From NCBI RefSeq assembly GCF_018128065.1, contig NZ_CP072359.1, forward strand, positions 124,001 through 188,000: a DNA stretch of 64,000 nucleotides. The letters are read 5' to 3'. The notes under the pieces were generated by a model. It did not search any database and was not told the DNA's origin. It saw only the letters and a list, made by a program, of their open reading frames with translations. The DNA is from Prevotella melaninogenica (lineage in GTDB: Bacteria > Bacteroidota > Bacteroidia > Bacteroidales > Bacteroidaceae). Both the position numbers and the translations under genes were made by a program. Below, piece by piece: positions 6,286 to 64,000 of this stretch. The first letter of the stretch is position 1. Each line of letters starts with the position of its first letter.

Positions 6286-6318
6286 ACAAAAGGCGTAGGG
6301 AAATCCTACGCCTTTTGT
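6286..6318. terminator. Bidirectional terminator between convergent phage operons
   Basis: A perfect 14-bp inverted repeat (ACAAAAGGCGTAGG, 5-nt loop, CCTACGCCTTTTGT) has A-rich and T-rich flanks, so it can serve both the terL operon and the portal gene that ends at 6318. Confidence 0.85.
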
Positions 6319-8297: not shown

Positions 8298-8323
8298 ATT
8301 GAAATCCAATTTAATAGTGTAGG

Positions 8324-8331
8324 CAAAGATA
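8324..8331 (-). promoter_or_regulatory. Promoter -7 box for the portal gene
   Basis: TATCTTTG on the minus strand lies 26 nt before the ATG at 8297, in the gap after the giant gene. It rules out the longer upstream start. Confidence 0.6.
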
Positions 8332-8359
8332 AGCAATGCTTACACTATCATAAGTTTAA

Positions 8360-17300: not shown

Positions 17301-20300
17301 TCAGTGCTGCTGCGCACTTCTGCTGTTCTGCTCTGTACTCGGCTATCTCCTTGTCGCTCAGACCTGCGTTCTTCAGTATTTTTGTCCAGTTCTCTTTCGT
17401 TAACTGACCTGCTGCCAGAAGATTCTCGTTGCGAAACTTCATCATTGCCTTTTCGATTTTCTGTTCGAGTTCTTGGGTTATCTTCATTCTCTTTTAATTT
17501 AGATTCATTTTCATTGAAGAAGCCACCAAACAAATCACCTGTGGTAGGCTGCTCCAAAGATACATCTTTTTTCTTTGAGTTGTTCTTTTTTATTGGCTTT
17601 TCTTTCTCTGCACTTACTTTTTCCTCTTTTGCAGTAATTGCTTTATTTGAGCTGACAATATCCTCATCCGAGTTTTTGTCTTGATTTTCAGAGTCTTCAT
17701 TATTTATAATATCCTTGCGCATGATTTCTTCTGAATTTTGCGCATAATTTTTCTCTGATTGTGTGTTAAAAATCGCATCAGCAAAAGCATGTGCTTCTTC
17801 TGCTGTATTAAATACAAAGCCATTAACACCACGGAAAGAAGAGTAATAACCGTTATGTTCTTTTGCCACCTGCTTACGCTGGGTGTAAACTTCCTTGTCT
17901 GTGCGTTCCTTACCACGTACAACCCAGATATCAACATCTTTCTTGTTGTTGTGCTGCTTGGTAATAGAATACGCGTCGTTGTCTACATCTTCTAACTCAT
18001 TAGTATTACTCTGTTCTTGCTTTGCATTAAATTCAACTATTGCCTCGTTGTTAATCTGCTCAGCTGTTTCAATAGCGGAAGGTGTTAACTGCTCGCCCTC
18101 ATTGCCTATTGTAGCAATGTCAAAACGACTCACTTCTTCATAGGGGGTCATTTCGTTTGATAACTCTACCATCTCTGGTAAATCTCTTGCACCATTATAG
18201 AATGCTTTGAGGTATGGACGAATAGCATCTCCGAGGTCAGAAATCATTTCCTTTGCATAGGCTCCAAAGGCACGTGCGCCATTCTCTATATGATACACTG
18301 CCATTTCTGCACCGATAGCTAACATCTCAGGGTCTACACCTAAATTAAGCTGACCCAACTTAGAGCGCATACGCTTCTTTAATTCTTCGTAGCGTTCATT
18401 AGATACAAGACGCTTGCTGCCTTTATCATCAATAGGATGTTGTACATTTACATCTCCTTCTGTTTTAACAGAAGAATATTCTGCAAACGGTTTTGTCTTG
18501 CGTTTACTGCTATCAATCCACTTCTTGAATTCTTCCTTGCTAACTTCTGTAATGTTGCCCAATCCTTGCCATCCCTCTTCATAATTAGAAAGATATGCTT
18601 TCCTTGCGCTTTCCATGTCAGAGAATCCGTACATTACCTTATGCTCATCGAAAGAACCATCTTTATTTACTTGGTCTATAACAAAGACATTGCCCTCTGT
18701 TGGGTTATCTGACAAAAATATGTCGATATGATCACCATCAACGCTTTCCGTGCCTCGAATGTATCCGTAGGTGTTATGCATCTCGGTTTTCCATTCCTTG
18801 CCATTTGCATCCTTACCACGACGAACACTGCCCTTAGGCTGTTCAATAGTGACATTGAAGCCATCTACCTTAATATGACCTTTCTTGTAGTTACCAGCTT
18901 CTTTCTGTGCTTCAGTCGGATTGGTGTCAACCTTTGCCTCCTCTTTTTTGCGTGTACGTTTAGCTTTATCTTCTGCCGCTACACGTTCAGCCATTGCAAA
19001 CAAATCTTCACTGACAGCATCTTTTTTAGCAGATTTTTCCGATTTTTTTTGCTTTGTATCAGATTGTTTGCTATCTTTGCCAGCAGAAGAAGTGTTTTGA
19101 GGAGTTATTACCGAGCCCTTTGTCTCGCCCTCGGCTTTATCAGGGTGAACATAGTCCAAACCTTGCTTCTCAGCCGAAGAAGTAGTCGCATCTTTCGGAG
19201 TGCGCCAAATAACACTACCCTCCATCAAAAGCCGTAATATTCTGTTACGGCTTTTTTCTTGATTGGAAACAACGACTTCTTTCCCATCAACACTAACAGT
19301 TATCGATGTGAAATAGTAATAACGTGTTCCGTCAGACTTCCTGAAAGACTTTATAAAGATGAAAGAAGATGGTCGTTCTGTATGTGTTCCCTCCTTTGCT
19401 TTACTATTTTCTTCTACAATGGCATCTGGATATTCCAACGTTGGTTTTAACATTCCCAATTTGCCATTACGACCTGCTCGCATAAGTTTTGCAAATTGGT
19501 TCTCGCCCATTTTAACGTCACCAATAGGGGTGGAAACTATGCCATCTTCTCCAAATTCTTTATCCCAATTTTCTATTGTTAACGGAATTTCTTGTGCTAC
19601 ATCTGCACCCAATTCCATTTGAGCTATAAAATCAGCAGCCTCCTTTTTCGTTAAATGTGAGTTTTCTGCTGCAACCTCTTCTTGGCTGCCTCCACTGCTT
19701 TGTCCACTTCCGCTTCTTCCAGTATCTCCTTCAGTTCCTCCTTTATTGGTTTCTGCCCCATCGATATTCTCACTTCGTCCTCTTGGCGTAGCATCTCCAT
19801 TGCTTCCTGCTCTCCCTTCTTGGCTTGCTGAACTATCGCCAGCCAAAACATTGCTTCTTTGTTGTCCATTATGTTCTATATTTAATGTTTCTTTGATTGC
19901 CTGCACAAGCGAACGTGGTGTATTATCAGGCTGCTCGAACAGAGTTTCTTCCTGTGTGCCTTGTATAAGGTCATACAATCTATTGAAAGTACCCTGTATG
20001 AGTGACTGATTGTCACCTTTGTACATAGTCGCAAGCAATAATGCAAAGTTATTATATTTTTCAGCAGGAAGATAACTTTCTCCTGTAACATCGTCGAAAG
20101 CAAGTTGTCTTCTCCATGCCTCAACAGCTATACGTGCATCTTTATGATTCTTAGCATTCATAAACATGCTATCATGTGACAGAGCATAATATGCCATGAT
20201 AGAGTCCTGAATATCCTCTATCATACGTTCGCTTTGTGGACTATCATAATCACGATAAGCCGTTGCAAGAATTGCTTTCTGTGCTTTTGCTGGTAGTGCA

Positions 20301-23300
20301 TTAAACATCTCCTCAAGCTGTGTATTACCACCCTCGAAGATACTCTGATACATAATACCCTTGATATCATTCTTCGCTTCTGCAGTAATATTGCCTTTGC
20401 TATCAAATGCACTCTTATACTGTGTTGGACTAATTACTCCATTAGTATTTAGCCATTTCAAAGCGTCAATACCATTGCTATCAACAAGCTCTGCAAAAGA
20501 GATATTCTCGTCATTAGCTCGCAAAAGAATGTTTGCAAAGTTCTTCATCTTGTCACCAAGTTTCTTAGCAACATTCTTAGGCTTGATACGTTCTGTACCT
20601 CCACTTTCTGTATCACTTGCGACGAACTGACCTAATGAAATAGCTTCATCATCGTTCACATCGAGCATATTAACAAGTATGGGCTTATCCATTGCTGCAA
20701 TGTCTTCTGCTCTTAGACCAAATGTTTCTGCATTATCAATGAGATACTTTTTGTACTTATCGCCTTGTTCCTGCTGATTGTTCCACATTTCACGAAGTGC
20801 AGCACTTCTATTATTACCTTGAATAACCTCTCCACGACTGTTCACTGTTGGTGCACCTGTATAAGCTGTAACAGACGATGTAATTTCTTCTGGGCGAATG
20901 TTTGCTGCAATCTTACGTGCTGCACCTACGCTTGCATCGTCTTTACGCTCTTTTGGTTGTGCCTCGTCGATAAAGTGCTGTGGATTTCGTTGCCCATTCT
21001 TATGACTTGGTTGTAACTGATTAGCTTCAATGATTGCAACGTGTCCTGTTGGAATGTTATCATCATCAAATTTAACCTGCACTTCTTTACCTATCGTTGC
21101 GTCAATAGGCTCTTGTCTGTCTACCTTATCCCCATTGACACGCCTGTAACCTCTTGCTCGTGCATCTGGAGCCTTATCTTCTATAAAATCGGGTACGCCA
21201 TTAAGAGTTTCACGCTTGATGCGTTCCGCTTCTTCTTGCTCTGCACGTGCTTTTTCTTCCTCCTCTTTACGTACACGTGTCATTTCGTCAGCTTTGCGCT
21301 GTTCCTCTGCTTGTATAGCGGCTTCACGCATACGATTAACAGCTGCAATCTTCCTCCAATGTGCAAGTGTTTCCTTAGCCTGTTCAATAACTGCAGCACG
21401 TTCTTTCTCCGCTGCAATCTTCTCTGCAATACTACCACCACTCTTTGTTTTGGTCTTTTCAGCCTTTTTTACACCAGCTTCCAAATCAGACACCATATCA
21501 TCGGCAACAGTCTGTGCCATACTCGTGTCACCTTCCGTCTGCTCTACAATAGCATCCCATGCTGTCTCGGGGTCTGTCTGCTCATAAAGAGGCTGTCCAG
21601 ATTCGTCTTTAGGAATGCGTTCCAAAGCTGTTGTTTGCTGTTGTGGGGCTTTCGCTTCTACCACTTCTACCGCTTCCTCTGTTTCTTCTTGCTGCTGAGG
21701 TTGCTGAATTGTTGCATCTTCCGAATCCTCTGCAGGCGCTTTTGTCAGCAAATCAAGTTCTTCAGCACTAAACAGATTTACTTTCTTTCCATTAATAGGC
21801 TGCTCTGTATAGACTTCAAACTTACCATCTTCATTCTCAGGGGCAGTTATACTTCCACGAACAATATTTCCATTCTCATCCGTGAACGTAACCTCATCGT
21901 TTATATTGTAAGTGTTATTAGAGCTGTTAGTTGGCGCATGCTCTACAACCTGCGTTGCTGCAACTGCTGCTCGACGTGCCTCATCAACCTGCTGCTGAAC
22001 TTGTGCTTTTGGTAAGAGGGTTGGCTGCTGAGCTCCATCAATATCAACAAGCACCATTTCAGGATTAACCTGTCCTGTCTTCTCATCTATTGCATCACCA
22101 ATTATAGACAAAGAGTGTTGCGTGCCGTCTTCTTTGTCAATAATTGGATAGGTGTCGCCTTGCTTGAACTCTAATTTACCATCAATCTTGTCAGCCTGCT
22201 GCTGTGCAAATGTCTGCCGAATATTGTCCGCTGCAGCTTCTTTTTCTTCTTTTGGATTAATAGGTGCATCCACCTTGAAGATTGCAGAAGGGTCTGCCGT
22301 TTCAAGTTCTCCGGTATCGGCATCACGTAATACAACAAAATCATCAGAGTGTTCATGATCAACACCGCTACCATCGGGGAGCATTACAACGTTACCATTG
22401 ACAATATACACTTGTCTATCATCCACTTTCATAGTTGCTGGATGAATAGCACCAGTATCAAGGTTTGTACGCTGGTCTACCTCAAGGTTACTTTCATGTA
22501 CTTTTGTGTCAATATCATCTTTCACACGCTGAATCATACCATTATAGGCTGCACGTGCATTGGCATAGTCGGTAAATGCCTGTAGCTGTTCGTCGTTAAA
22601 CTCATCACTATGCTTCATATAAGCTAAAGTTGACGCACCGCCATCTTTACCTATCATACTTTCAAGGGTGTCTTCATCCCAACCAGTAGTTTTTGTCGCT
22701 TGTTTCTTCGCCTCGTCATAAAGAATAGCTGTATTGTTGAGTTCCTTTTCGTCTTGCAAGTTGTAGCCCATACTGTAGGCTTCATCCATAGCATTAAACT
22801 GCCCCTCCAACTTATTCTTTGTGTCTTGTGCATTTACACCATGCACTACAGCCGTGCGATATTGATATTGTAAGGCTGCAACCTTTTGAGTATTTGACAA
22901 AGATTTATCATTGCCAATTTTTTCCATTACGCTACCTATCTGCTTTTCATCAGCATTATCAATAGCATCCTTATATTCATCCCAACGCTCACCAAAAACA
23001 GAACGTGCTTGTGCATCAGCTTTACGCTGCTCATGTGGTGCCTTGTAGCGTTCTCTTGCATAACCTGCTGTGTTAACTCCGCTCATTATACCACTCATCA
23101 GAGCTACACTATAGAACGTATCAAGATTAATCTTTGGATTGAACACTCCAGTGTGTGGGTCTGTGTCAAGTGTCATATCTCCATTGGTAACAGCATTGTA
23201 GAAATTATTAGCAACTTCCTCGAAGTATTCTCCAGCCATTCCGTTCCACTTGGTTTTCTCTTGGAAATTTTTCCAGGTCTTCGCCCAATTAGATGAACTC

Positions 23301-27696: not shown

Positions 27697-27832
27697 ATTT
27701 CTTCGGAAGAAATCCCACTTGAAACGCATTTCTTCGGAAGAAATCCCACTTGAAACGCATTTCTTCGGAAGAAATCCCACTTGAAACGCATTTCTTCGGA
27801 AGAAATCCCACTTGAAACGCATTTCTTCGGAA
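27697..27832. repeat. 31-bp tandem repeat array, about 4.4 copies
   Basis: Four identical 31-bp units (27697-27727, 27728-27758, 27759-27789, 27790-27820) and a 12-nt partial copy run head to tail with no spacers. Each unit contains TTTCTTCGGAAGAAA, a short hairpin with 6-bp arms and a CGG loop, then ATCCCACTTGAAACGC. The short frames here arise only because 31 is not a multiple of 3 and are not genes. The array lies between integrase and ejection modules, where iteron-like or regulatory repeats would fit. No function can be read from the sequence. Confidence 0.95.
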
Positions 27833-27971: not shown

Positions 27972-29453
27972 TTAAAAACCTTTGCCTTTCATTCGCTCGT
28001 AGACAGCCGATTGTTTCTTGTCTTGGTTTTCTATTTTGAAAATAACCATTGAGCGATTGGGAATGCTATCAGGGAGTTGCGCTGCGAGTTTTGCTATAAC
28101 CTCATCAACGTTGTTAAAACCGACATCAGTTATCTCGGCTAACTTACGTCCTTGAAAAAATGCTTCTCCATGTACTTGGTAACGGTATGATAGTTTAAAA
28201 CGTTCTTCTTTCGGTTTTTGTTCACGTCGTGACGGTTTATCAGAAAAGAAAATAAAATCAATAACCTTATCGTTGAGTTCCCATGCTGGAGAGTAATCTG
28301 TTTTAATATAACCACGTGTTACCTTGTGAGCACTGCTATGATTCATTGCAAATGCAACTTCTTCAATACTTGCATTGCAATCATTCTGTGCTACAGTTCC
28401 CCAGGTGTGACGGAAAGTGTAAACAGAATAATCGTTATCTTTATCGATTCCCATAGCCTCGCAAAGGTGTCGAATACCAATGTTTACATTTGCGCTGAAG
28501 CTGTCAGATGTCGTATGGCGTTTTGCAAAACAAAAAAGATGCTCATCATCCTCGTCTGTGCTTTTGTATTTCTCAAATAGGGGTTGCAGGATAGCAGGAA
28601 CACGCATTTCCATATAAGCACCATCAGTGCGAAACATCTTTGTCTTTGCTCTCTGATAGTGAAGAATGCTATCGTAATAATCAGACTTCTTCATGTGGAA
28701 TAAATCTACAGTGTTAATTCCTGCCAGGCAGATAACAATCATAGCAACGTCACGTCCTAACTCTTCAAGTGGATGCGCCATCTTGCTCTCGGGAAGAGGA
28801 AAAAAGAAAAACTCTCTACATGCTTCAGGAGTAATAGCAAGTTTCTCTGGTCTATCTGCCTTTGGTATTTCAACATTCATCCAAGGATTGGATTTAATTC
28901 TGATGAGATTGTTATCGTAGTCGTTGTATTCTACAAGAGCAGCCTTAAAAACTTGACGAATGCAAATAGGGTACATCTCTTTTGCTCGTTTTGTTGTTTC
29001 AAGAGATTTTATCCATTGGTTAATGAACAACGAAGTAAGTTCAGAGAACATGACTTTGGTTGTACCAGCAAAACGTTCAAGATGTTGTAAGGCAAGTTCG
29101 TAGTTGCGTGCATTGCGTTGCTGCCCTCTGTCAACCATTCTATCAATGTGCTTACGTGCGTATTCGCTGAAACATAAGTCAGAGTCCATTGTGCGTAAAA
29201 AGTCAACCACTTGCTTAACTGTCCATCTTGATGTGTTCACCCTGTTAAGCCTATCATTATACTCGATGATCAGACTTGAGCAATATTGCAAAACGTATGG
29301 GTCGGTGATTTCGTTCGTCTTACTAAGTCCCTTACTTGTTACATACTTGCCAGTTGTTATATATCCGACCTTTACGCCTACACCTACTCTGATATATACC
29401 TGCCAGAAGCCATCTTTGCGTGGTCTTCTGACTACCGCCTTAAATATTGCCAT
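27972..29453 (-). CDS. int: Prophage tyrosine recombinase (integrase)
   Basis: The 493-residue protein has an N-terminal arm-binding region, a SAM-like core-binding domain (about 90-190) and a C-terminal catalytic domain. Catalytic-domain landmarks are LAGINTVDL where most relatives carry the first Arg (here Asn), a Lys-bearing beta segment (YQRAKTKMF), TFRHTWGT with the second Arg, MNHSS in the GH box, and the nucleophilic Tyr in VTRGYIK. An extra C-terminal region of about 90 residues follows the Tyr. It catalyses site-specific insertion and excision. The gene is the last of the prophage before ppdK, so it marks that end of the element. Missing Arg I is also known in IntDOT-type enzymes, so the protein may still be active. 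Confidence 0.9.
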   Translation of the reverse strand: MAIFKAVVRRPRKDGFWQVYIRVGVGVKVGYITTGKYVTSKGLSKTNEITDPYVLQYCSSLIIEYNDRLNRVNTSRWTVKQVVDFLRTMDSDLCFSEYARKHIDRMVDRGQQRNARNYELALQHLERFAGTTKVMFSELTSLFINQWIKSLETTKRAKEMYPICIRQVFKAALVEYNDYDNNLIRIKSNPWMNVEIPKADRPEKLAITPEACREFFFFPLPESKMAHPLEELGRDVAMIVICLAGINTVDLFHMKKSDYYDSILHYQRAKTKMFRTDGAYMEMRVPAILQPLFEKYKSTDEDDEHLFCFAKRHTTSDSFSANVNIGIRHLCEAMGIDKDNDYSVYTFRHTWGTVAQNDCNASIEEVAFAMNHSSAHKVTRGYIKTDYSPAWELNDKVIDFIFFSDKPSRREQKPKEERFKLSYRYQVHGEAFFQGRKLAEITDVGFNNVDEVIAKLAAQLPDSIPNRSMVIFKIENQDKKQSAVYERMKGKGF

Positions 29454-53738: not shown

Positions 53739-53977
53739 TATTTTTGCAAAAAATCTATCCCCAAGGTTCAAGAAAAGGCGAAATAGCGTGAATTATTTGT
53801 GAGTCAGTCGGTTCTGACTTTCGAGCCTTTCAGTGCAAAACCTCGAAAAGACGGGTTTGTACCAACTTCGGACAGAGCAGCGTTACCAAAATATTACCAC
53901 CTTCTTTGCAAGTGAGGATTGGGAAAAGCGGTAACGAACAGTGCAAAATCCGACCTGAATTTCGGGGATTACCTCCC

Positions 53978-53987
53978 GCAAAGGTAC
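53978..53987. other. CTnDOT-like attachment core
   Basis: GCAAAGGTAC reads GTACCTTTGC on the other strand, an exact match to the GTANNTTTGC core recognised by IntDOT-type integrases. It sits 124 nt before a IntDOT-like integrase gene. It may be one end of the inserted element. The same 10-mer also fits a -7 promoter box, and an identical copy occurs at 37017-37026, so chance or a promoter cannot be excluded. Confidence 0.5.
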
Positions 53988-54110
53988 TTCGATGAAAGGA
54001 AACAGGCAAATAAATTGCGGACTGTTTCTTTACCATTGAACGACAATATTTTGCATAGCAACAAATAACCTGACAATGAATAGTTTTGTAAACCGTAAAA
54101 AGTCAGAGTT

Positions 54111-55346
54111 ATGCGTAGTACGTTTAAGGTTCTGTTCTACCTCAAAAAGAACGCCCCCAAGAAGAACGGTTTCGTTCCCGTGATGTATCGTATCACCATT
54201 GACGGTACGATAGCCCAGTTCAGTTGCAAATGCGACATCCATCCCGACTTGTGGGATATCAAGAGCAACCGCGCTTCGGGAAAAAGTGCCGTTGCGTTGG
54301 AAACCAACCGTTTCTTGGACAAGGTACGTGTCGGCATCAATGCCAAATACAAGGAGATAGCCGAGCGGGATAACTATGTCAATGCCGAGAAAGTGAAGAA
54401 TGCTTTCTTGGGTTTGGAGATGCGGCATGAAATCTTGCTGAAAGTCTTTGCCCAGCACAATGAGGACTTCGCCAAACAAGTAGATGCGGGCTTGCGAAGC
54501 CAATCCACCTACAACAAGTATTGCACGGTCTATAAACATTTGGAGGAGTTCATCAAGACCTGCTACCGTGTCAGCGACATTGCTTTGAAAGAACTCACTC
54601 CGGCTTTCATTACCGATTTCGACATCTTCCTGCGCACCGAAAAGCAATGCTGTAACAACACGGTATGGAGTTACATGATGCCCCTGCGCCGTATGATTAC
54701 CATTGCCCAGAATCACGGATGGATAGTTCGTGACCCGTTCGTAGATTACAGCATATCCGCCGAGAGTACCGACAGGGACTATCTGACCAAGGATGAAATC
54801 CGCAGGCTGTTGGATTTGAAATTCAGGCGTAAATCAATGGAGCTGGTTCGGGACTTGTACGTCTTCTGCTGTTTTACAGGCTTGTCCTTTACCGATATGA
54901 AGAACCTAACCAAAGATAACCTTCAGACTTCCTTTGACGGTAAACTCTGGATTATGACCAAGCGACAAAAGACAGGTGTGGAGTCCAATATTATGCTTTT
55001 GGATATTCCGAAGCAGATTATCGAGAAGTACGATGGCATGGCGAGGGAGGATTACCTCCTGCCCGTTCCGCAGTATATTACCGCCTGCAAGAACATCAAG
55101 AAAATCATCGAACTCTGCGGTATCGAAAAAGAGATTACGTGGCATACCAGCCGCCATACTATGGCGACGGAAATCTGCCTGACCAACGGCGTTCCCATCG
55201 AAACCCTCTCCAAGATGCTCGGACACACGAATATTCGCACCACGCAGATTTACGCCAAAATCACCCATGAAAAGGAAAGTCAGGACATGGCGGCACTCTC
55301 CGACAAACTGAGTAAGATAGAGCAGTTCAATGGTATTACTATATAA
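54111..55346 (+). CDS. int: Tyrosine recombinase, IntDOT-like family
   Basis: The 411-residue integrase has an N-terminal SAM-like arm domain and a core-binding domain (about 110-210), then the catalytic domain. Catalytic-domain landmarks are FTGLSFTDMKNLT (where most enzymes carry Arg I, here Ser as in IntDOT), TKRQKTG (Lys), WHTSRHTMAT (His and second Arg) and MLGHTNIRTTQIYAKI with the nucleophilic Tyr. GC content and codon use look higher than the flanking core genes, a sign of transfer. It is the first gene of the accessory region. The last eight codons and stop region are part of a 26-bp tandem duplication (55322-55373). Confidence 0.92.
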   Translation: MRSTFKVLFYLKKNAPKKNGFVPVMYRITIDGTIAQFSCKCDIHPDLWDIKSNRASGKSAVALETNRFLDKVRVGINAKYKEIAERDNYVNAEKVKNAFLGLEMRHEILLKVFAQHNEDFAKQVDAGLRSQSTYNKYCTVYKHLEEFIKTCYRVSDIALKELTPAFITDFDIFLRTEKQCCNNTVWSYMMPLRRMITIAQNHGWIVRDPFVDYSISAESTDRDYLTKDEIRRLLDLKFRRKSMELVRDLYVFCCFTGLSFTDMKNLTKDNLQTSFDGKLWIMTKRQKTGVESNIMLLDIPKQIIEKYDGMAREDYLLPVPQYITACKNIKKIIELCGIEKEITWHTSRHTMATEICLTNGVPIETLSKMLGHTNIRTTQIYAKITHEKESQDMAALSDKLSKIEQFNGITI

Positions 55347-55373
55347 TGCAGTTCAATGGTATTACTATATAAT
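55322..55373. repeat. 26-bp perfect tandem duplication at the integrase stop
   Basis: Two identical 26-bp units lie at 55322-55347 and 55348-55373. The first encodes the last codons of the integrase. The second is untranslated and is followed by AAGGAGG, the SD of the next gene. Confidence 0.95.
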
Positions 55374-55387
55374 AAGGAGGACGAACG

Positions 55388-55750
55388 ATGAAAAGAGAAA
55401 TCATAACCATTGGAGAAAACGGAAAAATACATATCCCGACAACTCCCGTTTGGATGTCGGCTTGCGAAATAGCCGATTTATTCGGCGTATTCTCCGGCAA
55501 GGTAAGCAGCCACATCAAATCTATCTTCAAAGTTGGTTTGCTCAGAGAAGACGAAGTGAAGCGAACCTTATCTTTCAAGGGCGGTGCGGTGGATTTATAC
55601 AACCTTGAAATGATTACGATGCTGTCATTTCGCTTTGCTTCTCCACAAGCCAAGAGTTTCCGTCAATGGATAATCGGAAGACTGACCGAAAAGAAGAGAA
55701 CAAGTCCTCCATTACTTATATGTTATGACAAAGGTGGATGGTACAACTGA
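55388..55750 (+). CDS. Small HTH-like protein, possibly RhuM-related
   Basis: The 120-residue protein begins MKREIITIGENGKIHIPTTP, with DNA-binding-like segments (SACEIADLFGVFSGKVSSHIK and VGLLREDEVKR). The end LSFRFASPQAKSFRQWIIGRL is reminiscent of RhuM-type and phage KilA-N-like proteins. It has an SD (AAGGAGG) 7 nt before the ATG, unusual for this genome and a sign of foreign origin. It is co-oriented with the integrase, which ends 41 nt before. Function is unproven. Confidence 0.6.
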   Translation: MKREIITIGENGKIHIPTTPVWMSACEIADLFGVFSGKVSSHIKSIFKVGLLREDEVKRTLSFKGGAVDLYNLEMITMLSFRFASPQAKSFRQWIIGRLTEKKRTSPPLLICYDKGGWYN

Positions 55751-55799
55751 ATATGAGAACAGGCAGTAAGAGAGGAGTTTCTTACCGCCTGTTGCTCTG

Positions 55800-56102
55800 T
55801 CAAGGCTTCTCAAACCGAGGGCGATAATTCTCCTGCAACAGTTTTTCCACATCTTCTTCCCGGTAGAGTACCTTTCCGCCTAACTTAACAAAGGAGATTC
55901 TTCCCATGTTGCGATAATCCTGCAACGTGCGCCGGTTGATATGCAACAGACGGGACAGTTCATCGTCCGTTAGATAGCGATGCCCGTTAAGCAGAGGTCT
56001 GTTCTTTTTCCGCAGGACATCTATCCCCTTTATCATACGGTCGCTCGCGTTGAGAAAGTGCGCAATCTCTTCATTGTTCTTGGTCTTTACGTCGTTGTCC
56101 AT
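55800..56102 (-). CDS. Excisionase-like helix-turn-helix protein (1)
   Basis: The 100-residue product has a HTH_17/MerR-type DNA-binding segment LTDDELSRLLHINRRTLQDY, then RNMGRISFVKLGGKVLYREEDVEKLL. That recognition-wing arrangement is typical of Xis-like and transposon accessory factors. An N-terminal charged helix precedes. Homologous small HTH genes occur in the excision modules of CTnDOT-type elements (xis2c/xis2d-like). It is on the minus strand, head to tail with the next HTH gene, and converges with the RhuM-like gene. Confidence 0.8.
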   Translation of the reverse strand: MDNDVKTKNNEEIAHFLNASDRMIKGIDVLRKKNRPLLNGHRYLTDDELSRLLHINRRTLQDYRNMGRISFVKLGGKVLYREEDVEKLLQENYRPRFEKP

Positions 56103-56139
56103 ATTTTACATCGGATTTAGTGGTGATACTATTCATTGG

Positions 56140-56418
56140 TCATAAAGCAGAGGATTGTTCGAGCAGTTTCCCGACATCCTCCGGCTTGTAGAACATCTTA
56201 TACCCTATTTGCGTATAGGGCAACATCCGGTTGCTGCGGTAAGTTTGCAGGGTACGCAAACTGATGTTCAGGATTTGGCAGACATCCTGATTGTCCAGCC
56301 ACCTGCCCATACGCTTTTCGTCACACTCCCGACACAGGGCATCGACCTTGGCGGTCAGAATGCAGAAACGCTCCATCATGGCTTCATACGTTTTCTTCTC
56401 GATTGCTATTACTTCCAT
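56140..56418 (-). CDS. Excisionase-like helix-turn-helix protein (2)
   Basis: The 92-residue protein contains LDNQDVCQILNISLRTLQTY then RSNRMLPYTQIGYKMFYKPEDV, the same HTH-wing layout as its neighbour but with a different N-terminal helix rich in Glu, Cys and Lys. It stands 37 nt before the start of the other minus-strand HTH gene, probably one transcript. The divergent gap 56419-56641 carries the promoters for the HTH pair on each side. Confidence 0.8.
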   Translation of the reverse strand: MEVIAIEKKTYEAMMERFCILTAKVDALCRECDEKRMGRWLDNQDVCQILNISLRTLQTYRSNRMLPYTQIGYKMFYKPEDVGKLLEQSSAL

Positions 56419-56641
56419 ATATCAATTTTTTATTTGGATATTACGATATGCAAATGTAATGACAGTGCATGTGAGAAAGAGATACTTTCATCTAACTGCG
56501 TGCTTGTGGCTTTGATATGACAGCCTGTGTCTTCGGGTTTGAATATTCGACAATAAAAATCTCTATTCAGTACATATTTAGCATACAATCCAAACGATTT
56601 CAATGCCCGAACTTTGCACCATAATCAAATTAAAAAGAACG

Positions 56642-56980
56642 ATGGATGTCATTACAATTGAGAGTAAAGCCTACCACGATTTGGTAGGTAAGATAGAGAA
56701 GATACTCCGATATATGGAGAAAGAGGAACAGGCGAAGGAAGAATATGAAAACCGCCTGATAACCAACAAGGACTTAGCCGAAATACTCGGCATCAGCCAA
56801 CGCACCTTTCAGCGGCTGCGGAGTTCGGAACGTATCGGCTACAAGATTATCCTTGGACGATGCTATTATGACTTGAAAGACATAGAGGAAGCGATACACA
56901 AGAAAAGCCTGTACTGCAACCCTCAAAACATCAAAGAGCTGAGACAGAATTTCCTGCTTAAAACCAAGAGAACGAACTAG
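56642..56980 (+). CDS. Excisionase-like helix-turn-helix protein (3)
   Basis: The 112-residue product (start MDVITIESKAY at 56642, not the upstream ATG at 56603) has a charged coiled-coil-like N-terminal part and the HTH segment ITNKDLAEILGISQRTFQRL. The wing RSSERIGYKIILGRCYYDLKDIEEAI follows. A weak GAACTTTG box lies upstream. It is one of four related small HTH genes, two on each strand. The first ten residues repeat the pattern of (2), VITIESKAYHDL against VIAIEKKTYEAM, so (2) and (3) are paralogues. Confidence 0.8.
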   Translation: MDVITIESKAYHDLVGKIEKILRYMEKEEQAKEEYENRLITNKDLAEILGISQRTFQRLRSSERIGYKIILGRCYYDLKDIEEAIHKKSLYCNPQNIKELRQNFLLKTKRTN

Positions 56981-56983
56981 CGT

Positions 56984-57301
56984 ATGGAACTATTGGACAA
57001 AGAAACTTTTCTTGAATGGATGGACCGGATCATGAGCCGTTTCGACCATCTGAAGCAGACCATTCCCGATATTCCCCAATGTCCGATGCTCAACGGCGAG
57101 CCGCTCTTGGACAATCAGGAGGTCTGTATGATGCTGCAAGTCAGCAAGCGAACCTTGCAGCGTTACCGAGATTCGGGGACGCTGCCTTTCCACATCATCT
57201 ACCATAAGACATGGTATTTGGAGTCGGAGATAACCGCCTTTATGAAACATCATTTCACAGAGAACATGAAAAGGAAACGCAAGAGAAAGGCAAGGGGATA
57301 A
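56984..57301 (+). CDS. Excisionase-like helix-turn-helix protein (4)
   Basis: The 105-residue protein has LDNQEVCMMLQVSKRTLQRYRD then SGTLPFHIIYHKTWYLESEI, the same HTH-wing fold. It begins 4 nt after the previous HTH gene and so is co-transcribed with it. The basic C-terminal tail (MKRKRKRKARG) would help DNA binding. Together with (1) to (3) it could form a regulator-excisionase cassette of the integrase element. Confidence 0.8.
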   Translation: MELLDKETFLEWMDRIMSRFDHLKQTIPDIPQCPMLNGEPLLDNQEVCMMLQVSKRTLQRYRDSGTLPFHIIYHKTWYLESEITAFMKHHFTENMKRKRKRKARG

Positions 57302-57797
57302 AATACGTTGCTTATAATCTTGTAAATTAATCACACGATTATAGAATATCACATTTGTAATATTAGTATAGAAATTGTTGAACAAACGGTAACAGGAATA
57401 ATGAAAGACATTAATTCATTTTTTTTCATAGTTGAATTACGACAATATTTTTCTCAACGTATAGTCTATTTTTCATTATTTAATCAAATACTTTGCCGAA
57501 TTCATCTGCAAAAAAAATATATTTCCGTAACTTTGTCCACTGTGAATATTGCACCAATTTATTTGTAATCTTTCAGTATTAAATACATTAAGAGTTACAA
57601 TAGCACTCTATTCTTCTAACTTAGGCAATTTAATTTCATCGGATTCACGTTAAGTTAAAGTCACATGTGGTATGAAAATGGCAAACTTGAGAATAGTCAA
57701 TCCTATACTAACGTATGAGGTAATATGACCGTTGTGACTAATTAGTTGATGTTGAGATATAAAATCATTAGGAAATTATTATTTTAAAAGCTGCATT
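57302..57797 (+). promoter_or_regulatory. Non-coding gap with a promoter before the Avs-like gene
   Basis: No convincing gene is seen in these 496 nt, which are very AT-rich. A -7 box TAACTTTG (57528-57535) would drive the downstream genes with a long leader of about 260 nt. A 39-nt repeat starting TTTGTAA and ending TTACAA (57562-57600) resembles one at 62015-62051. Confidence 0.45.
57562..57600 (+). repeat. Left copy of an imperfect flanking repeat
   Basis: ATTTGTAATCTTT at 57561-57573 is repeated exactly at 62014-62026. Both copies start with TTTGTAA and end with TTACAA after 37-39 nt, and they enclose the Avs-like gene. Confidence 0.5.
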
Positions 57798-58184
57798 ATG
57801 AAAAATATAGATTTCAATAATATTCGACTTGTCAATGGATCATTAAACGATGGGTTCGAGGAATTTGTGTGCCAATTGGCACGCAAAGAGGACATTACAT
57901 ACATAAAAAAATTTGTGCGGAATGGTAAGCCGGATGGAGGTGTAGAGTGTTATTGGATTCTAGAAGATGGTAGCCTAATAGCCTGGCAGGCTAAATATTT
58001 TTGTAATGCTTTTGATAATTCTCAGTATCAGCAGATAGATAATTCTGTGAAGGAGGCTTTAAGTGCGTATCCCAATCTGAAGAAATACATTATTGCTGTC
58101 CCTATAGATCCTTCTGATGCTCATATTTCTGGTAGGAAGAGTATGAAAGAGTATGAAAGAGCGTATCAATGGTTATATAGATAG
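57798..58184 (+). pseudogene. N-terminal nuclease part of a split Avs-like STAND protein
   Basis: This 128-residue frame encodes a PD-(D/E)xK (Mrr/Cap4-like) nuclease domain: FEEFVCQLAR helix, then Asp46 in KPDGGVE, and the core QAK (Gln64-Lys66) in LIAWQAKYF. The frame ends soon after SGRKSMKE because the 10-bp unit GTATGAAAGA is duplicated (58141-58160). Deleting one copy fuses it in frame to the next gene, giving about 1371 residues. In the Avs family such nucleases are the effector, released when the STAND core senses a phage protein. Confidence 0.8.
58141..58160 (+). repeat. 10-bp tandem duplication that breaks the defence gene
   Basis: GTATGAAAGA occurs twice in a row at 58141-58150 and 58151-58160. 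Since 10 is not a multiple of 3, the second copy shifts the frame. With one copy the protein reads SGRKSMKERINGYIDRWQK without interruption. Confidence 0.95.
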
Positions 58185-61100
58185 ATGGCAGAAGATAAAT
58201 GCCAATGTTACTTTTGAGTTTTGGTGGTCATCAGATCTTATAGCAAGACTTCAAATCCCTTCCAATCAAGGACTACTTCGTTTTTGGTTTGGTAATAATG
58301 AATTCACAGATGACAATTTTTTATTATTTAACAAGGCGTCCATCCTAGACCTTGGCAATCGCTATACACCCAAGTTAAATATAGAGGTAAGTTCAGCCCA
58401 ATATTTTGCAGTCCTCTCACGAGGTAAATCCTTTAAAGAATTCCTTAACACTGAACTGAAAAAAGCCGAATCAGCTTGTCAAAAGATAGAAAAGAATGAA
58501 AAATGTCAAGAAGCCACAGAGAGGGTTATAGACGTCAGGGAAAGTGTCGAGCGAATTAAAGAAGTTGATATTTTAGGAATTGAAAAAATTCCTATAGATG
58601 ATTTTTTGTTATCGTTGATGTCCTTAGCGAATACCGTACAGGACATTTATTATAATCTTATAGAAAAGGATATTAGCCAAAATATTAATAGGGAAATCCA
58701 AAAAATCTATGAATTAAGTGTAGATCTTTTGAATGTCTACAACGGTCTTCATCAAGAAGTCATGAAATTGGTTAATGATCCAGTACTGATTCTAGAAGGT
58801 GATGCAGGTGTTGGTAAATCTCATTTGCTAGCTGATATTGTAGAGAAGCGTAAGAATGATAAATTGGATAGTTTGTTATTGTTAGGACAAAAGTTCACAA
58901 CAGACGAAGAACCTTTTACTCAGATAATGAGAATGCTTAATTTTGACGGATCTTCTGAAGAATTGTTAGAAACGCTTGAAGCTAAGGCAGAGATATCTGG
59001 GCATAGGTTAGTTGTATTCATAGATGCTATTAATGAGGGACATGGACTGAATATATGGCCAAACTGTATACGAAGTTTTATTGAGTCTTTCCGTGCGCAT
59101 CCATGGTTAGGATTAGTCTTAAGTATACGTACATCATATGTACCAGCAATTATTCCTCGGGATGAATTCGGATATGATTATTGTGTAAGGGCAATTCATA
59201 GAGGTTTTGGTGCGAATACCCGAAAGGCTGTCTTGACATATTTTAAGGAGTACAATATTTTGTATCCGTCGGTTCCTCTACTAAACCCTGAGTTTCGGAA
59301 TCCTTTGTTCTTGCATTTGTTTTGTGAAGGCATGCAGAAGAATGGTTACCATAAAATACCTGATGGTATAAGGGGTATCTCTTCAGTAATTAAATTATTT
59401 TTTGATGGTGTTGAGAAGTCTATCAGGTCTCATATCCGAAATTCATCATCTATAAGTGTGGTCGAGAAAGCTGTTCACAGGTATATTGAATACTTGACAG
59501 AGAATGGTTGTCATGAATTATCAGTAGATGAAGCAAGCGAAATATTATCGGAAATAAGTCCGCGAACTTTCAAAGAGGGGGAACTTGTCGATTTATTGAT
59601 TTCAGAAGGTGTTTTTAGTAAGAACATCTTCTATGACGAAGATGGTGGAGACGTTGAAGGTATCTATCTTTCATACGAGCGTTTTGAGAATATATTGCAG
59701 GCAGAATATATTATTAATAATTTGAAGATTGATTCGGTGAGCCTTATAAGTTATTTGAAAGATATCAAAAGATTAGATAAGGTTAATGGGTTGTTTGAAG
59801 CTCTAGCCATCTTACTGCCAGAACGTAGAGGACAAGAATTGTTCGATGTTCTACCACAATTTAAGGAAAAAGGATATGTAGTTAATGCTGTGCTTTCAAG
59901 TTTGTTATGGCGGGACGAAAAGACAATAGATTCTCGTCTTGATAGCTACTTCAAACAGTTTTATGGTAATAGTCGATTTATGTACCGATTTGTTCTAACA
60001 ATTATAGAGATAAGCTTTAATCATAGGAATTACTTTAATGCCAACTATCTTCATCATATTCTTGCGCCAATGAAGTTAGCTGATAGAGATGCAGTGTGGA
60101 TTCCCATACTGTATCAAATTTATAGTGGTCAAGATAATATTATGGAGGAGATCATAAACTGGGCATGGGATGAAAGTGATAAGATTCATATTTCCGATAA
60201 ATCTGTTGAATTAGGTGTCACCTTACTTGCTTGGTTGTTAGCTAGTACAAATAGAAAGCTACGCGACACAGCTACCAAGGCTCTAATTCAGCTATTGCAT
60301 AGCCGAATGAATATATTGATATCTCTATTTGAGAAATTCAAGACGGTTGATGATCCTTACATTCAAGAAAGGCTTTACTGCATCGCTTTCGGCTGTGCAG
60401 TTCGCACCACGTCAAAAGAAAGTCTTAAAGAAATAAGTCTATATGTATATAGCTCGATATTTGACGTAAAGGGCGAAATCTATCCACACATATTACTACG
60501 TGATTATGCCCGAGAGATTATAGAATATGCAATATCAATTGGAGTAGAATTAGATATTGCCCTTGACAAAATAAGACCTCCTTACAACAGTAAGTTTGAG
60601 TTCGATGTTGTTACAGAAGAAGATATTATGTCTATATTGGATAAATGTGGTAATTATAAAGGTTCGCCCGGTATGTGCGGTATGGTAATGTCTATGCTTC
60701 CTGAGCATAGCAGTCTCTCTTATGGAGATTTCGGTAGATACACCTTCCAAAGTGCATTGAGCAATTGGAAGATAGATGCAGAAAGCTTAAACTATGTAGC
60801 CATTAAACTCATTATCAATAAATATGGATATAGTGAAGACAAACATGGTGTTTTTGATAAGGTAATTGGTTCAGGAAGAGGACGAACAACGACACCCAAT
60901 GAGCGAATAGGCAAGAAGTATCAGTGGCTTGCGTTTCATGAATTGTTAGCACGTGTCTCGGATAATTTCCTCAAAATAGAAGGCGCATGGAGCAATAATG
61001 TGGTGAAATATGAAGGACCATGGGATCCATTTGTACGTGATATAGACCCAACAACATTAATCCATATTAACGAATTATCCCCAGAAGATGAGTTGAAAGA

Positions 61101-61923
61101 TAACTTCTGGTGGAGTGTTGAAAAATATGCCAACTGGGATATGGATATGGTAGACTGGCTTAATGCAGATAATGATCTACCATCGGTTGAGCCCATCATC
61201 GAAACTAAAGATTCAGATGGATGTGAATGGCTTGCTTTGGAATGCTACCCTTCATGGGAAGAACCACATTATGATAATGGTATCTATAAGAGGCTATGGT
61301 ATCAGGTAAGGAGCTGCATCGTTGACGAAACAGACTTCAATCGTATTTACGAATGGGCTAGCAAACAGGATTTTGGTGGAAGATGGATGCCAGAAAACAG
61401 CGAAAGGTATGAAATGTTTTATCGTGAATACTATTGGTCTCCAGCTTATCATATCTATGACTCTGAAGGTATAACTAAAAAGGAACTCTACGATAGAAAC
61501 TCTGAAGAGTTTATGGGGAATATAGAGATCACAGCTATTTATTATCTATGGGAAGCAGAAGAAGATTATTCCAAGGAAACAGCTTTCTCATGCCTTTTAC
61601 CTTCAAAACAATTATTCGATGGGGTGGATATGAAGTTTACAGATAAACAAGGCATATTCTCTGATGACAACGGTAAAGTGGTTTGTTTTGACACTAGTGA
61701 AGTTGAGAAATCAAAGAAGTATTTACTTATTCGTAAGGATGCGCTACTTTCCTATCTGAAAGATAATCATAAGCGTATCTTGTGGTATGTGCTAGGTGAA
61801 AGAAACATAATTGGGCTTCATAATTACCCAGAAAATTTTCCTTCGTGGCTGGTTATTAGTGGAAATTATACATTGTCAGGAGACGGTGAGGTCACAGGGA
61901 GCCTCAGGACTAGCCATAAGTAG
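58153..61923 (+). CDS. STAND NTPase part of a split Avs-like defence protein
   Basis: This 1256-residue frame continues the nuclease fragment after the 10-bp duplication. Its P-loop is EGDAGVGKSHLL (about residue 215) and Walker B is LVVFIDAINEG (about 287-296), both of the STAND/NACHT type. A helical repeat-like region follows, then a Trp/Tyr/Asp-rich C-terminus (CEWLALECYPSWEE and REYYWSPAYHIYD), presumably a sensor. Such proteins oligomerise on recognising a phage protein and then cut DNA. An ATG at 58153 lies inside the repeat and overlaps the upstream frame by 32 nt, so the STAND half could still be made by coupling. It would lack the nuclease. Confidence 0.75.
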   Translation: MKERINGYIDRWQKINANVTFEFWWSSDLIARLQIPSNQGLLRFWFGNNEFTDDNFLLFNKASILDLGNRYTPKLNIEVSSAQYFAVLSRGKSFKEFLNTELKKAESACQKIEKNEKCQEATERVIDVRESVERIKEVDILGIEKIPIDDFLLSLMSLANTVQDIYYNLIEKDISQNINREIQKIYELSVDLLNVYNGLHQEVMKLVNDPVLILEGDAGVGKSHLLADIVEKRKNDKLDSLLLLGQKFTTDEEPFTQIMRMLNFDGSSEELLETLEAKAEISGHRLVVFIDAINEGHGLNIWPNCIRSFIESFRAHPWLGLVLSIRTSYVPAIIPRDEFGYDYCVRAIHRGFGANTRKAVLTYFKEYNILYPSVPLLNPEFRNPLFLHLFCEGMQKNGYHKIPDGIRGISSVIKLFFDGVEKSIRSHIRNSSSISVVEKAVHRYIEYLTENGCHELSVDEASEILSEISPRTFKEGELVDLLISEGVFSKNIFYDEDGGDVEGIYLSYERFENILQAEYIINNLKIDSVSLISYLKDIKRLDKVNGLFEALAILLPERRGQELFDVLPQFKEKGYVVNAVLSSLLWRDEKTIDSRLDSYFKQFYGNSRFMYRFVLTIIEISFNHRNYFNANYLHHILAPMKLADRDAVWIPILYQIYSGQDNIMEEIINWAWDESDKIHISDKSVELGVTLLAWLLASTNRKLRDTATKALIQLLHSRMNILISLFEKFKTVDDPYIQERLYCIAFGCAVRTTSKESLKEISLYVYSSIFDVKGEIYPHILLRDYAREIIEYAISIGVELDIALDKIRPPYNSKFEFDVVTEEDIMSILDKCGNYKGSPGMCGMVMSMLPEHSSLSYGDFGRYTFQSALSNWKIDAESLNYVAIKLIINKYGYSEDKHGVFDKVIGSGRGRTTTPNERIGKKYQWLAFHELLARVSDNFLKIEGAWSNNVVKYEGPWDPFVRDIDPTTLIHINELSPEDELKDNFWWSVEKYANWDMDMVDWLNADNDLPSVEPIIETKDSDGCEWLALECYPSWEEPHYDNGIYKRLWYQVRSCIVDETDFNRIYEWASKQDFGGRWMPENSERYEMFYREYYWSPAYHIYDSEGITKKELYDRNSEEFMGNIEITAIYYLWEAEEDYSKETAFSCLLPSKQLFDGVDMKFTDKQGIFSDDNGKVVCFDTSEVEKSKKYLLIRKDALLSYLKDNHKRILWYVLGERNIIGLHNYPENFPSWLVISGNYTLSGDGEVTGSLRTSHK

Positions 61924-62266
61924 GTAATAATAAATGGTACACACATTCTTACAGTTTGATTACAATAAGAATATCCTACGTAACACGAACTTTAGCGAAT
62001 ATAGCGGAGATTAATTTGTAATCTTTTGATATTATTCATTTAGCATTACAAATAATCCCGCTACTAATCAAATTCTTATCAATATATTTTTCGACAAACT
62101 TACGTAAATAGCAATGTGACTATAGCTTTATGAGACAAATGTTCTATTAACCTGAACTCGGGATAAGTTTCTTTCTATTACTCTGATTTATTTATCCTAT
62201 AACCCATTTAGCCTCTATCGTCTTAGATTGAGGCTAATTCTTTTTCTCAAAATGCAAACTGTTTCT
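61924..62266. other. Non-coding gap between the defence gene and an IS fragment
   Basis: No gene or clear terminator is seen in these 343 nt. The right copy of the flanking repeat lies at 62015-62051, with TTTGTAAT and ATTACAAA as inverted ends. The sequence around 62153-62170 could be an IS end but I could not pair it. Confidence 0.5.
62015..62051 (+). repeat. Right copy of an imperfect flanking repeat
   Basis: This copy starts TTTGTAAT and ends ATTACAA, forming a possible hairpin. It matches the left copy at 57562-57600 exactly over 13 nt and imperfectly over the rest. Confidence 0.5.
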
Positions 62267-62733
62267 TTAGAACAAAGAAAGTTGACCGCTGTGTTGTTCT
62301 ATGCAGAAATCTAAATTGATTTCAGGTTTCTTTTCAAAGAAGCTATATGCAGCTATTGCTGATAATACATTCATAGCAAAATTAAGGACACTTCTATGTC
62401 TAGAGTGGACCAATTGAGCTACATTCTTCAGTTCGTCATTGATGGTTTCAATTACAGATCTTTTTCTTAAAAGCAGTCTATCATATAATGGGATTAACTT
62501 GTTTTTCATATTACTTCTTATACCTGTTACCAAGTTAATCCCATCATTGAATAATTTTTCAAATAGTCCCTTAGAGATGTATCCTTTATCGGCAAATAAC
62601 TTTCCGAACACATTGTCAGTCAGTCTATTAAAGACATCTTCATCTCTATCGTCTACATTGGCTTTGGTAAGCATAAAGTTGAGAATTTCCCCCCGTTCAT
62701 TACATATAAGGTGCAGTTTAACCCAAGTTTAAC
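62267..62733 (-). pseudogene. Truncated IS982-type transposase
   Basis: Reading leftward, the fragment begins within WVKLHLICNERGEILNFML, continues through VDDRDEDVF (a conserved D), GKLFADKGYISKGLFEKLF and RSVIETINDELKNVAQLVHSR (with the Glu of the DDE set). It ends with a normal stop. The N-terminal half, with the first Asp, is missing. The frame closes (TAA) at about 62733, next to the start of another insertion element. IS982 transposases are about 290 residues, so roughly half is lost. It is a non-functional remnant. Confidence 0.85.
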
Positions 62734-62884
62734 TGGCAAAAATATTTTTCATAAATATTCGGGATGTTTTGTGTAGTATCAATTTTATAAATGATTGATA
62801 ATCAAGCATAGGGTATTGTAACGAGGAGTAAAATCCGAATTGTAGGACACCGTCATATCAAAATTATTTTGTTACTTTGCACTC

Positions 62885-64000
62885 ATGCACGCAAATGTAC
62901 AGACACGATTCAACCCTGCAACAGGCGACATGGCTCCTTATTATCGCATTAAGGAGTCATATCGTGACGTGCAGGGTCATGTACATTCGCTAATTCTGTT
63001 GAACATCGGGTTTGAACCTTCACTTACTGCCGTACAGGTTCGAAAAATTGCATACGCACTTACCGAACGCTTCAAAAACAGAAGTACACCCTCGCTTTTC
63101 AAGGAACATCTTGACGGACTTACTCCTATTGAACAGGCAAAGGCTGACGAATGGTGGAGCCGTATGGAGCAAGAAGGTGGAATCGATAGGTTTAACAAGG
63201 AAGAGCAGAAGTCGCTGAGAAAATATGAGAACTACGTTGACCTTGAGACGGCAAAATATACTGACGCAAGGAATGTCGGTGCTGAGTGGCTCTGCAAGCA
63301 GACGATAGACAAACTGCAATTAGAGGGTTTCCTGCGCAGAAACGGCTGGACGGAGAATACGATCCGCACGGCTTTGTCAGCATTGATTGTTCGCACAGTA
63401 TATGCAGTTTCTGAACGTTCGTCTTATTATTATTTGCGCGATAACTCAGCTGCTGGTGAACTTTATAGTGGAGTTCCTGGCTGGACACCAGGAATCAATT
63501 CTCTGTATAAAGTCACTGACAAATTATATGAACTAAAGGAACAGTTAGAGCGTCATCTGTGCAACGTTACTGACGATCTCTTTAATATAGACAACAAGTT
63601 GATGCTCTTCGACTTAACCAACTTCTATTTCGAGGGCAGTAAGCGTAACAGCGACAAGGCTAAGTTCGGTCGGTCAAAAGAAAAACGCTCTGACTGTAAG
63701 CTACTTGTACTTGCACTATGTATCAATAAAGAAGGTTTTATACGTTATTCTTCTATCTTGGAGGGTAATACAGCAGACCCCAAGTCTCTGCCCGATATGA
63801 TTGACACGCTGGCAAAGAAGAATCCATCACGGACAAAGGATACGCTCGTTGTCATGGATGCAGGTGTTGCCACGGAAGAGAACTTGGAGCTGATTAAAAG
63901 AAAAGGTTACAATTATCTCTGCGTATCTCGTACGAAAATGAAGGACTATACGCTCAGTGATGATAACAGGAGTGTTACGGTAATGGATGCCCGTCGGCAG
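62885..64000 (+). CDS. DDE transposase, IS1634/IS4-like, 3' part off the window
   Basis: An open frame runs from the ATG at 62885 to the right edge (372 codons). It begins MHANVQTRFNPATGDMAPYY. The catalytic region shows LMLFDLTNFYFEG (first Asp) and TLVVMDAGVATEENLELI (second Asp). The acidic residue of the third position would lie beyond the window. These match DDE transposases of the IS1634/IS4-like type (PF01609). A TACTTTG box stands just before the ATG. It follows directly after the truncated IS982 gene, so its insertion may have cut that gene. Confidence 0.85.
   Translation, partial: MHANVQTRFNPATGDMAPYYRIKESYRDVQGHVHSLILLNIGFEPSLTAVQVRKIAYALTERFKNRSTPSLFKEHLDGLTPIEQAKADEWWSRMEQEGGIDRFNKEEQKSLRKYENYVDLETAKYTDARNVGAEWLCKQTIDKLQLEGFLRRNGWTENTIRTALSALIVRTVYAVSERSSYYYLRDNSAAGELYSGVPGWTPGINSLYKVTDKLYELKEQLERHLCNVTDDLFNIDNKLMLFDLTNFYFEGSKRNSDKAKFGRSKEKRSDCKLLVLALCINKEGFIRYSSILEGNTADPKSLPDMIDTLAKKNPSRTKDTLVVMDAGVATEENLELIKRKGYNYLCVSRTKMKDYTLSDDNRSVTVMDARRQ

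What the first reader, a model, noticed from the sequence alone, without database searches (positions are those of the whole stretch)
57798..61923. Avs-like defence gene split by a 10-bp slippage duplication
The nuclease and STAND halves are in different frames solely because GTATGAAAGA is duplicated. Removing one copy gives a seamless 1371-residue protein. Short tandem duplications can revert by slipped-strand mispairing, so this could be an on/off switch of a costly suicide-type defence, or a recent loss. The STAND half keeps its own ATG in the repeat, and might act as a regulator alone.
Basis: partly seen in the sequence, partly recalled or inferred. Interest (0 to 1): 0.8.

Follow-up and report, generated by a model that had tools for sequence, protein, structure and literature searches.

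The report
Avs2 defence gene broken by duplication
In this Prevotella-type chromosome an anti-phage gene of the known Avs2 family has been cut in two by a 10-base duplication, while nearly every relative examined has it in one piece, so it is most likely a recent, ordinary loss of a defence gene rather than a dedicated switch.

Summary
Window 57798-58184 (128 aa) and 58153-61923 (1256 aa) are two parts of one Avs2 gene, in different frames because a 10-bp unit is present twice (58137-58156). A same-genus genome (G146) carries the gene at 98.4% DNA identity with one copy of the unit and a 1371-codon frame; that is the only coding indel between them. Of 64 distinct loci whose N-terminal domain could be aligned, 63 read through the junction in one frame; the other (L094) is broken elsewhere. 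The break, at residue ~113-118, lies inside the nuclease domain, not at the module boundary (~160-178). So it is not a two-gene system. The gene sits in a ~29-kb integrative element absent from the matching G146 locus. Only five amino-acid changes are specific to the window copy, so the break looks recent. Reversion by slippage is possible, but nothing shows a selected switch: the duplication was seen only here, and its 5-bp seed is one of 65 such pairs in the gene. Best reading: recent loss of a mobile Avs2 gene, potentially revertible at low frequency.

The parts
57424..57797 (+). Upstream region that travels with the gene; homology with G146 begins at 57424. A TAACTTTG (57528-57535) resembles the Bacteroidota -7 element (consensus recalled).
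   Evidence: boundary; motif; 70 matches in the window against 61.6 expected, so weak
57798..58184 (+). ORF 1, 128 aa: first ~118 residues of the Avs2 nuclease domain, then ~10 out-of-frame residues and a stop
   Evidence: PADLOC Avs2 E=5e-39, matching the N-terminal end of the profile
58137..58161 (+). Tandem duplication: 10-bp unit twice (58137-58146, 58147-58156) plus 5 bases in register
   Evidence: one copy in G146
58153..61923 (+). ORF 2, 1256 aa: residues 116-1371 of Avs2 (last ~45-60 residues of the nuclease domain, STAND NTPase, C-terminal sensor part); its ATG lies in the second repeat copy
   Evidence: NCBIfam Avs2 NF041813 1172.9 bits against cut-off 1000; PADLOC Avs2
53754..64000 (.). 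Left part of a ~29-kb integrative element that holds the gene; it continues beyond the window to about coordinate 82764. GCAAAAAA occurs at both ends (53746-53753 and 82757-82764).
   Evidence: in G146 the chromosome runs straight from 53753 to 82751; no shared repeat of 10 bp or more between the ends
54111..55346 (+). Tyrosine recombinase (integrase) of the element
   Evidence: Pfam Phage_integrase, Phage_int_SAM_5, Arm-DNA-bind_5
55388..57301 (.). A protein with a weak RhuM match (below cut-off) and four HTH_17 proteins, the element's left module; an element of G016 shares this module
62267..64000 (.). Nested insertion sequences downstream of the gene

Best explanation
The locus is an Avs2 anti-phage gene carried as cargo in an integrative element. 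It was inactivated recently when replication slipped between two copies of AAGAG ten bases apart and duplicated the unit, shifting the frame inside the nuclease domain. Shown here: the family, the duplication, the single-frame form in the close full-length relatives examined, the element and its empty site. Inferred: the slippage itself; that the intact protein senses a phage packaging protein and cuts DNA as other Avs1-4 do; that the two fragments do not make a working defence; that the state can revert by slippage at a low rate but is not a maintained switch. A possible driver, untested, is the prophage in the same window, whose large terminase is the kind of protein Avs systems sense.
For: One copy and an open frame in G146 at 98.4% DNA identity. 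63 of 64 distinct loci with an alignable N-terminal domain are in one frame across the junction (66 of 92 rows, 3 rows being contigs fetched twice; the 64th is L094). In the genus and family searches with the intact protein, all 6 other full-length matches at 60% identity or more are single frames: G146, G109, G267, G167, G731, G359 (12 of 398 and 16 of 399 genomes matched at all, own genome included). No further indel or stop in either half. Only 5 window-specific amino-acid changes, one at a nearly invariant site (G740R; G in 12 of 13). AAGAG flanks the unit in the one-copy allele. The gene is absent from the matching locus of G146 and lies elsewhere in that chromosome. Other broken copies exist (L094; apparently P0136), so decay of this gene is not unusual. 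Prophage terminase; found in 1 of 5 Avs2-bearing genomes tested, the own one.
Against: A tandem duplication is one of the few frameshifts that can revert, and the rest of the gene looks maintained, as a switch would predict. The genome set holds one genome per species, so no sister strain was compared. One search used the best-scoring 79 of 494 loci, so broken copies may be under-counted. No expression or phage data exist. The terminase idea rests on one genome, and two of the four genomes without it are incomplete (52% and 78%).
Confidence: 0.74

Rival explanations
1. A phase-variable switch: slippage moves the gene between an intact state and this split state, sparing most cells the cost of a suicidal nuclease.
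For: The duplication is exact and the rest of the gene is open. De novo tandem repeats in a coding sequence revert at measurable rates: 9.3e-7 and 3.6e-5 for two alleles in PMC4169377 (passages). Phase variation of other phage-defence genes is reported, e.g. BREX pglX (PMC9122589, passages) and restriction-modification genes (PMC12707154, passages).
Against: Only two copies, unlike usual contingency tracts (recalled). Two copies were seen in this genome alone; the 5-bp seed is exact in 1 of 7 distinct loci whose junction was read (G146) and in neither of the two added (G731, G359). The seed is one of 65 direct repeats of at least 5 bp at offsets 6-20 in the intact gene, 38 of them at frame-changing offsets, so the spot is not special. 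The 32 standalone N-terminal proteins found (all 32 read) end at scattered places and none carries the window's shifted tail; these are representatives of 90% clusters, so members were not seen.
Confidence: 0.12
2. A genuine two-gene system: truncated nuclease plus a separate STAND protein started at the ATG in the repeat, perhaps a regulator.
For: ORF 2 has its own ATG at 58153 and overlaps ORF 1 by 32 bases.
Against: 0 of 64 distinct loci with an alignable N-terminal domain are split there. The split leaves conserved residues of the nuclease part (W127, W139 invariant in A1) on the other protein. Of the 22 loci with no alignable N-terminal part and no contig end, 19 begin to align at residue 160-178, which is where a module boundary would be.
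Confidence: 0.04
3. A sequencing or assembly error: the real gene has one copy.
For: The raw reads are not available; the relatives have one copy.
Against: The assembly has 2 contigs and is 99.97% complete; a 10-bp tandem duplication is not a typical homopolymer error (recalled); the window differs from G146 at other sites too, so it is not a mix-up.
Confidence: 0.08

Closest known systems
Avs2 (AVAST type 2), NCBIfam NF041813, PADLOC Avs2, solved structure 9o4e
   Same: PADLOC Avs2 profiles match both halves taken apart, the NCBIfam one ORF 2; relatives at 98% to about 60% identity have the same layout in one frame; the profile of A3 matches 9o4e over residues 166-948
   Different: Split into two frames by a duplication; the N-terminal nuclease part finds no match in 9o4e by sequence and shows only a weak resemblance to Avs4
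Reversible de novo tandem repeats in a beta-lactamase gene (PMC4169377; outline, abstract and passages seen)
   Same: A short duplication inside a coding sequence, in some alleles seeded by direct repeats, able to revert by slippage
   Different: There reversion was observed under selection and changed the enzyme's substrate range; here no switching is observed
Phase-variable BREX pglX and restriction-modification genes (PMC9122589, PMC12707154; passages seen)
   Same: Defence genes whose expression or activity varies by phase variation
   Different: The passages name homopolymer slippage and site-specific recombinases for restriction-modification; here only two copies of a 10-bp unit

Membership tests
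Avs2 | Curated Avs2 profile above its cut-off | tested here: met
   ORF 2 scores 1172.9 bits, cut-off 1000; ORF 1 matches the Avs2 N-terminus in PADLOC
Avs2 | Effector, STAND NTPase and sensor in one polypeptide | tested here: not met
   Split in the window; one frame in 63 of 64 distinct relatives with an alignable effector. So the locus is a broken allele of an Avs2 gene, not an intact Avs2.
Avs2 | STAND NTPase with P-loop | tested here: met
   GDAGVGKSH is present in ORF 2; nSTAND6, NACHT and others hit below cut-off; G331, G336, K337, S338 invariant in A1. The P-loop reading is recalled.
Avs2 | Nuclease effector with catalytic residues | tested here: inconclusive
   D46, E50, Q64, K66 are invariant or nearly so and present in ORF 1; the PD-(D/E)xK reading is recalled; the fold job had not finished
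Avs2 | Activation by a phage protein such as the large terminase | not testable with these tools
   Needs phage challenge; the triggers of Avs1-4 are from PMC12931631 (passages)
Phase-variable contingency locus | Repeat tract kept among alleles or relatives | tested here: not met
   Two copies only in the window; one copy in G146; the frame is continuous across the junction in 63 of 64 loci; junction DNA read (by a pattern that finds one-copy forms only)
Phase-variable contingency locus | Both states within one population or species | not testable with these tools
   One genome per species held; no reads

The most novel reading that the evidence does not exclude
Avs2 in these bacteria is bet-hedged: a de novo 10-bp duplication silences a suicidal nuclease in most cells, and slippage regenerates armed cells often enough that a phage epidemic, or loss of a resident prophage whose terminase would trigger it, re-selects them.
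Probability: 0.1. Interest if true: 0.6.

Novelty: new member of a known kind. Interest (0 to 1): 0.27.

Why it matters
If only a loss, it is one more example of how defence genes on mobile elements decay, caught at the first step with the intact form preserved in a neighbour genome. If reversible, it would be a simple route by which a costly STAND nuclease is switched without regulators; the two natural alleles (window and G146) make that testable.

Tried and rejected
Second copy in the own genome: none. Close relatives in phage and plasmid records: none in phages; 3 plasmid records, one matching only the downstream flank and two a short stretch of Vibrio Avs2. Viral contigs: 5 loci of 35-36% identity, whose match to the intact protein starts only at residue 166. 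Recurrent break at the same site: the 32 standalone N-terminal representatives end at scattered sites. P0121 (113 aa) stops just before the repeat; this fits an assembly break at the adjacent K/M difference between alleles (P0001 has M, G146 has K at residue 114) and is not evidence for a mixture of copy numbers, but it cannot be settled. P0125 ends at the matching 'SMKE'; a contig end cannot be excluded. Eight of the 120 proteins listed (P0072, P0074-P0076, P0080-P0083) are shorter and cover 61-83% of ORF 2; whether they are broken or cut by contig ends was not examined. L094 (Photobacterium galatheae) is another broken Avs2, in three frames, with no tandem duplication seen at its breaks. The distant copy in G147 (L006, about 29% identity) is also in two frames near residue 1111-1117. 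Promoter, tRNA and RNA-family scans gave nothing that bears on the question.

Literature: no title or abstract start in the listings reports a phase-variable Avs or STAND defence gene (open-licence PMC papers only; one search found no paper; one search listed 15 of 193 and 12 of 51; the listed papers were mostly not opened). Searches were on tandem duplications, Avs2 triggers and loss by autoimmunity; only PMC4169377 of these was opened. PMC4987407 was seen in passages and is not used. Programmed frameshifting was considered only by eye and rejected because relatives are in one frame without it.
Full report
Observation. In 20 simulated first-order Markov sequences the mean number of exact tandem duplications with a unit of 10-40 bp was 0.1; the window has 4, of which this is one.

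Host. G167, given as the same genus, has a contig of the same length (108,583) as a record titled Prevotella sp. tf2-5 whose Avs2 locus was also found, so the genus is Prevotella or close to it.

Identity. ORF 1 and ORF 2, searched apart, both match Avs2: PADLOC E=5e-39 for ORF 1 and E=0 for ORF 2, NCBIfam NF041813 at 1172.9 bits against a cut-off of 1000 for ORF 2 (ORF 1 there gets only a weak Avs4 hit). Pfam gives no family for ORF 1 and only sub-threshold STAND/NACHT/AAA hits for ORF 2. The one solved structure matched by the family profile is 9o4e, an Avs2.

Intact relatives. The protein search with ORF 2 gave 1086 proteins (8000 candidates scored, 120 listed); the best, P0001, is 1371 aa and 98% identical over all of ORF 2. 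In the genus search with ORF 2, 10 of 299 genomes had any match; with P0001, 12 of 398 in the genus and 16 of 399 in the family, the own genome included each time. The full-length matches at 60% identity or more other than the own are G146, G109, G267, G167, G731 and G359: 6 of 6 in one open frame. The own genome matches in two pieces with a 10-residue overlap. G146 aligns with the window over 57424-61923 at 98.4%; its gaps are five single bases upstream and the 10-bp unit, which G146 has once (the printed alignment was cut after about half, but the 6 gap openings and 15 gap positions in its header are all in the printed part).

Wider family. From the named genome scan 494 loci encoded a relative, of which the best 80 were kept as 79 loci. 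With the 5 viral loci and eight loci from the genus search, 92 loci were examined. Left out beforehand were the own genome's loci (L001, L013, L018), L002-L005 (same genes as L014-L017) and L010-L012 (fragments or second pieces). In 66 rows (63 distinct loci; three contigs were fetched twice) one match of the intact protein spans residues 100-140 and the frame is open for at least 1363 codons. In 26 rows it does not: 22 have no alignable N-terminal part at E 1e-5 (19 of them begin to align at residue 160-178, three at 266-286; one of these three, in G198, shows a weak N-terminal match in the same frame), three run off a contig end, and one, L094 from Photobacterium galatheae, has the N-terminal domain but is frameshifted between residues 128 and 139 and between 210 and 218, without a tandem duplication at its breaks. 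So 63 of 64 loci with an alignable N-terminal domain are in one frame across the junction and none is split at the window's place. Loci came from the best-scoring end of the list, so broken copies may be under-counted. The effector boundary of the family appears to lie near residue 160-178, and the break in the window, at ~113-118, lies inside the nuclease part.

Other broken copies. Besides L094, the public protein P0136 (167 aa, 92% identical over 66% of ORF 1, on a 56-kb contig) starts late and ends in residues out of frame after residue ~200 of the intact protein: apparently another near-identical gene with a different lesion, or an assembly with base errors. This tells against 'all close relatives are intact' and for ordinary decay.

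Age of the break. Against G146 the two halves show 14 synonymous and 26 non-synonymous codon differences. With P0001 as third sequence, 5 amino-acid changes are specific to the window, 20 to G146 (16 of them from residue 1301 on, perhaps a recombined tail), 25 to P0001, and 1 site differs in all three; residues 114-115 were left out. One window-specific change, G740R, is at a site that is G in 12 of 13 sequences. There is no second lesion. The break thus looks recent, and selection on the rest cannot be judged from so few changes.

Mechanism of origin. In the one-copy allele of G146 the unit is flanked by AAGAG on both sides, ten bases apart, a usual seed for slippage. This is not a special spot: the intact gene has 65 direct repeats of at least 5 bp at offsets 6-20, 38 at frame-changing offsets. 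Among the 7 distinct loci whose junction DNA was read, only G146 has the exact seed; the two added (G731, G359) lack it. A tract that relatives neither keep nor extend is not what a selected contingency locus looks like.

Reversibility. Published reversion frequencies for two de novo tandem repeats in a coding sequence are 9.3e-7 and 3.6e-5 (PMC4169377, passages; I did not see their unit lengths). So the split allele can probably revert, but at a rate that would make it a rare event. Phase variation of other defence genes is known (PMC9122589 and PMC12707154, passages).

Context. The gene lies in an integrative element. G146 continues from window coordinate 53753 directly to 82751, so the element is about 29 kb; GCAAAAAA occurs at both ends. 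Left module: integrase, a protein with a weak RhuM match, four HTH_17 proteins, shared at 89% with an element of G016 whose next genes look, by eye only, like those of a larger conjugative element. After the Avs2 gene come nested insertion sequences, then a hybrid two-component regulator, a Fic protein, a TraG-like coupling protein and, at the right end, a weak TIR-like hit. In G146 the Avs2 gene is at another place in the chromosome, so it has moved on its own or in other carriers.

A possible driver. The same window holds a prophage with large terminase (3754-5847, phrog_2) and portal (6318-8336, phrog_156). Avs1-4 are described as sensing the packaging machinery and killing the cell (PMC12931631, introduction passages). 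The terminase gene was found in 1 of 5 Avs2-bearing genomes tested, the one with the broken copy (two of the other four are 52% and 78% complete). This fits autoimmunity driving the loss, but with n=5 it is only a hypothesis.

Verdict. A broken allele of a known defence family, recent, on a mobile element; potentially revertible, not shown to be a switch.

Noticed in passing
window 485-29453: Prophage with terminase, portal, an integrase (27972-29453) and one 5595-codon open frame (8360-25147, - strand).
   Followed up: partly
window 27697-27832: Exact 31-bp tandem repeat, about 4.4 copies, between prophage genes and the prophage integrase.
   Followed up: no
window 55322-55373: Exact 26-bp tandem duplication overlapping the stop codon of the element's integrase.
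   Followed up: no
window 62267-64000 and L013 10267-13292: Two pieces of a DDE_Tnp_1_3 transposase gene lie on either side of another transposase gene, as if split by its insertion.
   Followed up: no
L113 16054-17184 (right end of the element, beyond the window): 377-aa protein with a weak match to the CAP12/Pycsar TIR effector domain, below the curated cut-off; no PADLOC match.
   Followed up: partly
L094 8001-12222: Photobacterium galatheae Avs2 in three reading frames: an independent broken copy.
   Followed up: partly
P0136 (public protein, 56-kb contig): Near-identical Avs2 piece that starts late and ends out of frame after residue ~200: another broken copy or an error-laden assembly.
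   Followed up: no
L014, tail of the Avs2 gene: 16 of 20 G146-specific amino-acid changes lie after residue 1300, suggesting recombination in the last 70 residues.
   Followed up: no
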